From: Branchiostoma floridae
Lineage: Eukaryota; Chordata; Leptocardii; Amphioxiformes; Branchiostomatidae
Direction of reading: 5' to 3'
Length of the DNA stretch: 64,000 nt
Assembly: GCF_000003815.2 (NCBI RefSeq)
Contig: NC_049996.1
Span: 17,213,440 to 17,277,439 of the forward strand
Shown here: piece after piece, positions 42,001 through 45,000 of the stretch
Numbering within the stretch: the first letter of the stretch is position 1
Layout: the number at the start of each line of letters is the position of its first letter
Made by a program: the position numbers and the translations under genes
The notes under the pieces: generated by a model
Told to the model about the DNA's origin: nothing
The model's database searches: none
What the model saw: the letters and a program-made list of their open reading frames with translations, nothing else

Positions 42001-45000
42001 ATATTGAAACACACTAACTCTTGTTTTTCCGACTACTTAAGTACAAGATTTGTTAGTTTTACGCTGATTTTTTTTTTGCATGTTGTGTCATGCTGAAAGT
42101 TTTTTTCGTTGATATTGTACTATCAAGTTTTTTTATTATATTTTAATATTTGTACTGATCTACGTCTGCAATGCCATGTCTTCACACTAGGGGGCGCTTC
42201 GGCAAGGTGTACAAGGCCGTCCAGAAGTCCTCGGGGAGCGAGTTTGCTGCCAAGCAGCTGTGCGTGAGCGACCCCTGTCAGATGGAACAGGTACTGCAGG
42301 AGGTGGAGATCATGCGGCTGTTGGACCACCCAAAACTCATCCAGCTGGCCGATGTCTTCAGGCAGAGGAACCAGCTCACCCTAGTGCTCGAGCTGTGAGT
42401 TTGTTTGTTTGTTTATTTGTTTGTTTGGGACCATCCGAAGCTTATCCAGCTCGCTGATGTCTTCAGGCAGAGGAACCAGCTCACCTTGGTGCTCAAACTG
42501 TGAGTTTGTTTGTTTGTTTATATATTTGTTTGTTTGTTTGGGACCATCCGAAACTCATCCAGCTGGCCGATGTCTTCAGGCAGCGGAACCAGCTCACCCT
42601 GGTGCTCGAACTGTGAGTTTGTTTATTTGTTTGTTTGTTTGTTTGTTTGTTTATTTGTTTGGGACCACCCAAAACTCATCCAGCTGGCTGATGTCTTCAG
42701 ACAGAGGAACCAGCTCACCTTGGTGCTCGAGCTGTGAGTTTGTTTGTTTGTTTGTTTGTTTGTTTGTTTGGGACCACCCGAAGCTTATCCAGCTGGCTGA
42801 TGTCTTCAGGCAGAGGAACCAGCTCACTTTGGTGCTTGAACTGTGAGTTTGTTTGTTTGTTTGTTTATTTGTTTGTTTGTTTGGGACCACCCAAAACTCA
42901 TCCAGCTGGCTGATGTCTTCAGGCAGAGGAACCAGCTCACCTTGGTGCTCGAGCTGTGAGTTTGTTTGTTTGTTTGTTTGTTTGTTTGTTTTGTGTCCAA
43001 GCAGTTAGGCATTGTTGGCCACCTGGATCCAATTCCATGGATCTGTGGGCCTGAGTTTGATCCCATGGTCAGCTCAGCTCGGACATGCTGTAAGGGATTG
43101 CATTTCGTCTTTTGGGAGGGACATAAAATGGGGGCCGTGTTCGAGGAGGTGCCTCGAGCAAGTAAAACAGCCTCATTACTCCGATTGGGTACCTACTGGC
43201 TGCAAGAATACATCAACTTGAATTAAGTCCTAACATACCATCTATTTTGTCCCCACAGAGTGTCCGGTGGCGAGCTGTTTGAGCGAGTGATCGACGACGA
43301 CTTTGTGCTGACAGAGAAGGACTGCGTCATCTTCACTCGGCAGATCTGCCAGGGCGTCGGGTAAGGAGTCTTATTTGATCTGCTTCTCTGTGAAGTTTCT
43401 CTGGCTTCTTTTCTTGTTTCCTAATCTTCTTCATTCACTACACCTTTATTTGTCTGTGTGAATTTCATCATAATCACTTTTATTGGTCTGTTAGTTGATT
43501 TATTGCAAACTTATTGTGCTGAGTTGGTTGGAGTTAACAGTTGTGTATGTTTCTGGCTTCAGTAAAGTAAGTGCTCTGGGCTTAGCTTGAAAGTTTTTCT
43601 GTGCTGGTAGACATCATTCTGAAGCAAAACTGAACTGTAATTTCCAACTCAAAACTTATGGACCGCTTCTGTGACAAAGACTGGAGTTGGACAGTGGAAA
43701 ATTTGGTTATGTCCAATTTTTGTGTGGGAAGTTTGCAGCTTTGAACTTTTCATCAAAACTACTGGCTGAGAGAGAACAATAACAAACAATGAAAGACATT
43801 TAAGTGCAAACTTCACTGTACTTGTGTCATTTAGCCTCTAGCCACTGAAGAAGCTGTACATAGCGAAACTAGTTTGGCCGACAGGCTGAATAAAAGCTCA
43901 AAACTTGAACTATGCGGCTCCAGATGTCTTTCTGAGGGACGACTGCAGTGTGCAAGATGTCACGGTAGCTTGAGGGATGAATCTACTCTACTATATACTG
44001 CATACTTCTCAACGGATGGACCCTCGCTGTAGTATCATCTGGAACTCCGGACCCAGAATGATCCCGTACATCACAAGAAAGCACCGAGAAGCAAGACAAG
44101 CCCTCTACGAAGACGCATGCTGGACCAAACCATCGCCGCCAAGTCGAGCACAAGGAAGACACTGAGTTACCACCGAGTGCGCCACGAAACTACCATCACT
44201 GCCCACCACACCAGCGAGAAAGGGAAGAAAGGGGACGTCATCCACAAGTTGTCCAAAGCCCGCAAGATGCTGAGAAGCCAGAGCTACACGCCAGAGCAAG
44301 ATAAACAGCTGAAGGAAGACAACATCTCGGAAAAAGACGGACCAGGGCACCCCTTACTTCTTGATTATCGAATGTGTAAACAGACCTTTTTATGACATGT
44401 GTAATTGTTCTAGAACAATAGATGAAGTCATAGGTCATAGGTCACTTAAGGTCAGGGCAACCTGCCCCTAGGATCTAAGGTGCAAAATGTACCAGGGCAG
44501 AATGCACTGGAAAGGTATATAAGTGCAAACTTCACTGTACTTGTGTCATTTAGCCTCTAGCCACTGAAGAAGCTGTACATAGCGAAACTAGTTTGGCCGA
44601 CAGGCTGAATAAAAGCTCAAAACTTGAACTATGCGGCTCCAGATGTCTTTCTGAGGGACGACTGCAGTGTGCAAGATGTCACGGTAGCTTGAGGGATGAA
44701 TCTACTCTACTATATACTGCATACTTCTCAACGGATGGACCCTCGCTGTAGTATCATCTGGAACTCCGGACCCAGAATGATCCCGTACATCACAAGAAAG
44801 CACCGAGAAGCAAGACAAGCCCTCTACGAAGACGCATGCTGGACCAAACCATCGCCGCCAAGTCGAGCACAAGGAAGACACTGAGTTACCACCGAGTGCG
44901 CCACGAAACTACCATCACTGCCCACCACACCAGCGAGAAAGGGAAGAAAGGGGACGTCATCCACAAGTTGTCCAAAGCCCGCAAGATGCTGAGAAGCCAG

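What the first reader, a model, noticed from the sequence alone, without database searches (positions are those of the whole stretch)
42319..42961. Kinase exon tail copied five times with almost only synonymous changes
The last 25 codons of the exon encoding the N-lobe to hinge ([18 protein letters not shown]) plus the GTGAGT donor recur five times downstream. By eye about 25 codon differences exist between copies and the exon; all but one (Glu to Lys in one copy) are synonymous. Intronic fossils should not show this. Either the array grows outward from the functional copy, so each unit was once the constrained exon end or sampled a functional allele, or the copies are still used.
Basis: seen in the sequence. 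Interest (0 to 1): 0.85.

Follow-up and report, generated by a model that had tools for sequence, protein, structure and literature searches.

The report
Exon-end repeats kept coding-competent by exchange
In what is probably an amphioxus muscle-kinase gene, the end of one exon is repeated five times inside the next intron, and although these copies have no evident way of being translated they differ almost only by silent changes, most likely because copies and exon keep swapping sequence so that damaging changes are weeded out.

Summary
Six units at 42323-42961 (exon tail plus five intronic copies) differ at 14 coding columns: 13 synonymous, 1 not (Glu>Lys, copy 1). Among the intronic copies alone it is 12:1 (P about 1e-6 to 2e-5 against neutral mutation). 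[quoted passage not shown] About ten more lie in this window. The silent bias recurs in two arrays matching published globin mirages (11:3, 9:3) and at kinase exons on two other chromosomes (9:0), but is weak or absent in several others (one 5:12). Pooled without this array: 75:43 over 30 arrays. Outward growth is not supported: divergence does not rise with distance from the exon, and simulated outward growth leaves dN/dS at 0.58-0.75. Direct use is unlikely: TGA follows each donor in frame and no acceptor precedes a copy. Best explanation: two-way exchange between intronic units and the exon, with the exon as filter. The best-fitting simulation gives dN/dS 0.03 and silent divergence 5 times normal diversity; observed about 0.025 and 9 times. 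Exon-tail polymorphism, pedigrees and RNA junctions would decide.

The parts
42191..42394 (+). Kinase exon (glycine loop to hinge), ends ...LVLE L|GTGAGT, phase 2
   Evidence: sequence; translation RFGKVYKAV...LTLVLE; joined to the next exon it matches MYLK4 2x4f E 2.6e-23 and twitchin kinase
42323..42394 (+). Exon copy of the repeat unit (72 coding bases)
42395..42400 (+). Donor GTGAGT contiguous with the exon
42428..42505 (+). Intronic copy 1 with GTGAGT; carries the only amino-acid change (Glu>Lys)
42541..42618 (+). Intronic copy 2 with GTGAGT; mosaic (copy-1-like left end, mostly exon-like after it)
42662..42739 (+). Intronic copy 3 with GTGAGT
42771..42848 (+). Intronic copy 4 with GTGAGT
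42884..42961 (+). Intronic copy 5 with GTGAGT; the copy closest to the exon sequence (3 differences)
42401..42991 (+). Stretch holding the (GTTT/ATTT)n spacers between the copies; 33-49 bases from each donor (included) to the next copy; no AG in the five spacers
43259..43361 (+). Next kinase exon ([14 protein letters not shown]...)
47588..47825 (+). Acceptor-side array at a later exon of the same kinase ([11 protein letters not shown]), 4 intronic copies, S:N 2:0
29434..29665 (+). Donor-side array at an Ig exon, 2 full copies, S:N 5:0
35133..35597 (+). Acceptor-side array at an Ig exon (EEGNPLSLT), S:N 3:2
20958..21300 (+). Acceptor-side array (NLRDVEC), 6 copies, S:N 1:1
19625..20553 (+). Acceptor-side array at a linker exon, S:N 3:5 over 4 copies, plus a copy with a 1-base deletion and a partial copy left out
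39060..39259 (+). Acceptor-side array, 1 copy, S:N 1:0
57709..57900 (+). Donor-side array, S:N 1:0
58424..58597 (+). Donor-side array of period 57 (19 codons), open in frame throughout, S:N 3:4
4850..5075 (+). Acceptor-side array at an Fn3 exon, older copies, S:N 2:3

Best explanation
This is a mirage: a minisatellite whose unit straddles the exon end and its donor. Shown: the array, the silent-only divergence, units that look mosaic, and the same bias in other arrays, including two that match published ones. Inferred: unequal crossing-over and gene conversion between arrays on different chromosomes keep moving unit sequence in both directions between intronic positions and the one position that is the exon. 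Exon and units then form one enlarged pool of sequences. A silent change can drift anywhere in the pool. An amino-acid or splice-site change in an intronic unit is harmless until exchange puts it into the exon, where it is removed. With B. floridae's effective size of about 1.7 million, an exchange rate of roughly 1e-3 or less per array per generation should suffice (scaled from the simulations). The untranslated copies thus stay coding-competent without being expressed, as by-products of exchange.
For: (1) N:S among intronic copies alone is 1:12; exchange confined to intronic copies gives dN/dS 0.73-1.03 in simulation. (2) 8 of 21 pairs of informative columns show all four combinations, and copy 2 joins copy-1-like and exon-like segments, which suggests exchange that includes the exon. 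(3) All five copies keep GTGAGT; over the ten arrays, 31 of 34 copies keep the splice dinucleotide. (4) Two-way conversion including the exon gives dN/dS 0.029 and silent depth 5.2 times single-copy diversity at N*c = 1000; observed dN/dS is about 0.025 (1 change on 53 N sites against 12 on 16 S sites) and depth about 9 times (0.37 against pi_S 0.0397, PMC12862219). (5) The bias recurs in arrays that match the published BflGb6 and BflGb9 mirages (11:3, units-only 8:2; and 9:3; joint P 3e-4 to 9e-4 even against a null that allows for a constrained exon) and in kinase exons on other chromosomes (L027 3:0 and 5:0, L031 1:0). (6) Kinase-exon arrays total 24:1 and all others 64:43 (Fisher P 3e-4; without the hinge array 11:0, P 0.007): the filter seems to track how constrained the exon is. 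(7) Mirage clusters are reported to vary in length, BflGb6 having 6 and 3 units on two haplotypes (PMC3087553 passages).
Against: No exchange event was observed; there is one assembled haplotype and no population or RNA data. Observed silent depth (about 9 times) exceeds what was simulated for six units (about 3.5 times with crossing-over at N*c 480; 5-6 times with conversion). Exchange within one chromosome did not reproduce the pattern (dN/dS 0.42-1.15 with little silent depth at high exchange). Four-gamete failures could partly be recurrent mutation, since 12 of 14 columns are transitions. Several arrays do not show the bias: L029 5:12, 20k 3:5, 58k 3:4, 5k 2:3, 21k 1:1, and 14542 of the upstream 200 kb 1:3. 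Outside kinase exons the units-only count is 27:27, still above neutral but far from the hinge array. The kinase grouping was made after seeing the hinge array. Counts within an array are not fully independent.
Confidence: 0.6

Rival explanations
1. One-way copying: intronic copies are repeatedly overwritten or created from exon alleles (including outward growth), and never feed back into the exon.
For: One-way conversion also gives low dN/dS, 0.072. The exon and copy 5 differ at only 3 columns.
Against: It predicts silent depth of only about 1.5 times single-copy diversity, against about 9 times observed. Outward growth leaves dN/dS at 0.58-0.75 and predicts divergence rising with distance; observed 10, 5, 4, 9, 3.
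Confidence: 0.2
2. The copies are used directly, for example by splicing to the internal TTCAG of a unit, which would add a 33-base in-frame mini-exon, so selection on protein acts on them.
For: TTCAG to the donor is 33 bases, in phase with the exon end, without a stop (sequence). All donors are intact.
Against: No AG lies in any of the five spacers, so a whole copy cannot be included. Reading through a donor meets TGA at once. The 33-base route would repeat [11 protein letters not shown] at the kinase hinge and would leave the 39 unit bases up to TTCAG unconstrained, yet these hold six of the silent columns and no amino-acid change. The silent bias is also seen in acceptor-side arrays. [quoted passage not shown]
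Confidence: 0.07
3. Mutation bias: a transition-rich or CpG-rich spectrum hits third positions by chance.
For: 12 of 14 variable columns are transitions.
Against: Even kappa 8 with tenfold CpG gives 37.5% synonymous and P 2.7e-5. CpG mutability in B. floridae is only about twofold (PMC12862219). Two of the three first-position changes are the synonymous Leu and Arg kinds.
Confidence: 0.02
4. Assembly artefact: alleles of the exon were strung together as false tandem copies.
Against: Alleles differ at about 4% of silent sites, the copies at about 37%. Spacers differ in length and pattern. The class is supported elsewhere by trace reads (BflGb6) and resequencing (PGBD5).
Confidence: 0.03
5. Ectopic copying from paralogous kinase genes that each evolved under constraint.
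For: Silent divergence of this size is typical of paralogues (general knowledge).
Against: An 84-base search of the whole assembly finds the six units and nothing else at E <= 0.001, though only best candidates are scored. It would also have to hold for globins and other kinases separately.
Confidence: 0.03

Closest known systems
Amphioxus mirages (minisatellite-like tandem duplications of exon-intron boundaries: Adh3, globins BflGb6 and BflGb9, troponin C, PGBD5)
   Same: Unit straddles the splice site; donor- or acceptor-side; splice dinucleotide kept in 31 of 34 copies; unit size in the same range. Two globin loci fetched here match the published layout (spacings 154, 158, 158 and 157 bases).
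   Different: Nothing structural. The near-absence of amino-acid changes is not mentioned in the passages read; the 2002 Adh paper cited for the name is not held here.
Silent donor cassettes of antigen-variation or antibody loci (pilS/pilE, vls, chicken Ig pseudogenes) - recalled; the one search made found no paper
   Same: Unexpressed copies beside one expressed site, kept open in frame because their sequence can be copied into it.
   Different: There protein diversification is selected; here protein is conserved and only silent variation persists, and the exchange is inferred.
Intron gain by tandem duplication at AGGT sites (Rogers model)
   Same: Tandem duplication including splice signals within genes; PMC3087553 proposes mirages as raw material for it.
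   Different: No new intron has formed here; the copies lie inside an existing intron.

Membership tests
[quoted passage not shown]
Amphioxus mirage minisatellite | Present in a cephalochordate genome | tested here: met
   Indirect: the same assembly holds globin arrays with the published BflGb6 (150-160 base units) and BflGb9 (157 base) layouts; the assembly is unnamed and its 513 Mb size fits B. floridae by recall
Amphioxus mirage minisatellite | Length polymorphism between haplotypes, somatic instability | not testable with these tools
   one haplotype only; reported for BflGb6 and Adh3 in PMC3087553
Amphioxus mirage minisatellite | Regular splicing not disturbed | not testable with these tools
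   no RNA data
Silent donor cassette system | Unexpressed copies remain coding-competent | tested here: met
   units-only S:N 12:1; that they are unexpressed is inferred from the sequence
Silent donor cassette system | Sequence transferred from copies into the expressed site | tested here: inconclusive
   mosaic-looking units; no transfer observed
Silent donor cassette system | Selected diversification of the protein | tested here: not met
   one amino-acid difference in 14 columns

The most novel reading that the evidence does not exclude
Untranslated intronic copies across the amphioxus genome are held under amino-acid-level purifying selection purely because they exchange with an exon (selection on what a copy would do if it became the exon). 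Exon ends with mirages would then be pools of silent variation several times more diverse than ordinary exons, and each array would record how strongly its exon is constrained.
Probability: 0.5. Interest if true: 0.8.

Novelty: new member of a known kind. Interest (0 to 1): 0.62.

Why it matters
Low dN/dS is normally read as proof that a sequence is expressed and functional. Here intronic copies that seem not to be expressed show it, apparently because they share a pool with an exon. If confirmed, it gives a natural case of selection on potential rather than present function, would explain why mirages stay splice-competent and could seed new introns, warns against using low dN/dS alone to annotate exons in repeat-rich genomes, and predicts unusual silent diversity at many exon ends.

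Tried and rejected
Outward growth from the exon, mutation bias, assembly artefact and paralogue origin were considered and rejected or down-weighted. Simulations with low N*c gave weak purging (crossing-over including the exon, dN/dS 0.25-0.99); one run (c/uN 1667) had too few mutations to read (1.55). Exchange within one chromosome gave 0.42-1.15. Crossing-over in larger arrays (n 13.9) gave 0.49, and conversion with 12 units 0.12, so the mode and amount of exchange matter.

Rows dropped or set apart before counting: the boundary at 31410 (4), mis-set in an intronic array; L027 minus-strand and L028 rows (antisense of the same array; doubtful exon); the array at 177836 of the 200-kb piece (no coding difference seen), that at 49569 and the remaining TRF-only arrays, not judged exonic by eye; the frame-shifted copy at about 19937, the partial copy at 19625, and copies under the length threshold such as 35133; the L046 duplication (intronic). 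bigT3 was first read in a wrong frame and corrected to 3:2. On rechecking I removed two silent changes: the last codon of the L027 acceptor array (edge of the array) and a GTT/GTA difference in the farthest BflGb6-like copy that its 1-base deletion creates; counts and P values are those. The first codon of the BflGb9-like array may likewise be a junction effect; it was left in as nonsynonymous. The 31 arrays pooled are 19 from the automatic scan of 264 kb (plus-strand exons only; about 2 of 20 hits could be chance by its control), 10 annotated by eye (three of them, L027A, L027D and L029, also found by the automatic scan) and 2 globin arrays. L029 may end at a stop codon rather than a donor.

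Literature: nine of ten searches used. No title or abstract start listed there concerns silent-only change in mirages, but the 2002 paper cited for the name is not held.

Full report
What is there. The window is G000:C18:17213440-17277439 of a 513-Mb, 431-contig assembly. The gene at 42 kb is a myosin light chain kinase/twitchin-type kinase with Ig and Fn3 exons: two joined exons match MYLK4 at E 2.6e-23 and twitchin at 1.1e-19; Ig and Fn3 are read from the translations by eye. At 42323 the last 72 bases of the glycine-loop-to-hinge exon plus GTGAGT are followed by five copies, with (GTTT/ATTT)n spacers of 33-49 bases from donor to next copy. An 84-base query finds only these six places in the whole assembly.

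The silent-only pattern. The six units differ at 14 coding columns: 13 synonymous, 1 nonsynonymous. Eleven columns are third positions, three first, none second; two of the three first-position changes are the synonymous Arg (AGG/CGG) and Leu (CTN/TTG) kinds. Leaving the exon out, the five intronic copies alone give 12:1. Random mutation would make 23-38% of changes silent; the probability of the observed split is 6e-8 to 2.7e-5 over the spectra tried and 1.5e-6 to 2.3e-5 for the intronic copies alone. Silent divergence is deep: pairwise JC dS 0.07-0.82 among intronic copies and 0.22-1.12 against the exon. B. floridae silent diversity is 0.0397 (passages of PMC12862219), so the copies differ about nine times more than two alleles do.

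What kind of thing it is. Tandem repeats spanning exon-intron boundaries were named mirages in amphioxus Adh3 and reported in globin genes BflGb6 and BflGb9, in troponin C and in PGBD5 (passages of PMC3087553, and PMC3902484). In the window, about ten further arrays sit on exon boundaries, on both donor and acceptor sides. A systematic scan of 264 kb (window plus 200 kb upstream, plus-strand predicted exons) tested 614 predicted boundaries; 20 have copies in the adjacent intron, against 2 when each boundary was compared with an unrelated intron.

Is the silent bias special to this array? No, but it is uneven. The 19 usable arrays of the scan total 41:11 S:N, units-only 21:3. Of nine globin stretches located by family search, two reproduce the published layouts (unit spacing 154, 158, 158 bases with three intronic copies; one copy at 157 bases) and give 11:3 (units-only 8:2) and 9:3. 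These two were chosen for being published, not for their pattern. Of six kinase loci first sampled on other chromosomes, three hold arrays: a C19 kinase exon has them on both sides with 3:0 and 5:0, a C1 kinase exon has 1:0 (found by tandem-repeat search and eye), and a C8 locus has an array at a death-domain-like end, not the kinase domain, with 5:12. The six further kinase loci gave no array in the scans. Other arrays without the bias are a linker exon 3:5, an Ig exon 3:4 and an Fn3 exon 2:3. Over all 31 arrays the count is 88:44; without the hinge array 75:43, P 2e-6 at a null of 0.42, which allows for a constrained exon branch, and 4e-5 at 0.45; units-only without the hinge 30:27, P 4e-5 to 3e-3. 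Kinase-domain arrays are 24:1, others 64:43, Fisher P 3e-4; without the hinge array 11:0, P 0.007. This grouping was made after the hinge array was seen.

Mechanism. Eight of 21 pairs of informative columns show all four combinations, and copy 2 carries copy-1-type codons on its left and mostly exon-type codons after them. Either units recombine, with the exon taking part, or silent sites mutated recurrently. Divergence from the exon does not increase with distance (10, 5, 4, 9, 3). I simulated haploid populations in which only the exon unit is selected. With exchange confined to intronic units, dN/dS among them is 0.73-1.03. Outward growth gives 0.58-0.75. Exchange within one chromosome gives 0.42-1.15. 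Crossing-over between chromosomes that includes the exon falls from 0.82 to 0.14 as N*c rises from 10 to 480, with silent depth about 3.5 times single-copy diversity at 480. Two-way gene conversion including the exon gives 0.11 at N*c 240 and 0.029 at N*c 1000, with silent depth 5.2-5.6 times single-copy diversity and an exon just as diverse. One-way exon-to-copy conversion gives 0.07 but depth of only 1.5 times. Observed values, about 0.025 and about 9 times, fit two-way exchange best, though the depth is still under-predicted; a larger historical unit number or a raised local mutation rate could account for it (inference). With an effective size near 1.7 million, N*c of 1000 needs only c near 6e-4 (inference).

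Could the copies be used directly? Each donor reads CTG TGA in the exon frame, so reading through stops at once, and no AG lies in the five spacers, so a whole copy cannot be spliced in. A 33-base in-frame mini-exon could in principle start after the internal TTCAG of each copy; it would repeat eleven residues at the kinase hinge and would not constrain the first 39 bases of the unit, which hold six of the silent columns. RNA data would settle this.

Verdict. The array is an ordinary member of a known amphioxus class. The silent-only divergence is real, recurs in arrays chosen without regard to it, and was not described in any passage read. The best explanation is that exon and intronic units form one exchanging pool filtered at the exon position. 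The exchange itself is inferred, not seen.

Noticed in passing
58424-58597: Three 57-base units with GTAAG donors form one open frame of 19-codon steps after an Ig exon; a choice of donor would add 19 or 38 residues. S:N is 3:4, so constraint looks weak.
   Followed up: partly
L027:2680-3873 (G000:C19): One kinase exon carries mirages on both sides: two acceptor-side copies and two donor-side copies, all differences inside the arrays silent (8:0, or 9:0 with the edge codon).
   Followed up: yes
L029, minus strand, about 4000-5000 (G000:C8): Five decayed copies of the end of a death-domain-like exon (named by eye) with many amino-acid changes (5:12): an array that seems to have stopped exchanging, or that lies after a stop codon.
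   Followed up: partly
47588-47825: One of four copies has a broken acceptor (TTACAA) and another a weakened one (TTAAAG) although their coding parts show only silent changes.
   Followed up: no
32207-33423: About 1.2 kb array of 19/38/57-base units reading GAGAAACAGATGCGCGA, open in several frames.
   Followed up: no
about 43800-44395 and 44519-45114: A direct repeat spaced by 719 bases in the intron after the next kinase exon, with an identical 120-residue open frame in both copies; looks like a mobile-element remnant.
   Followed up: no
14159-14476 and 45632-45970: Two open frames share a peptide ([29 protein letters not shown]): copies of a dispersed repeat.
   Followed up: no
L043 1129-1378 (G000:C7) and L047 480-1056 (G000:C18): Globin arrays matching published BflGb9 and BflGb6 mirages show the same silent bias (9:3 and 11:3); the farthest BflGb6-like copy has a frame-shifting 1-base deletion.
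   Followed up: yes
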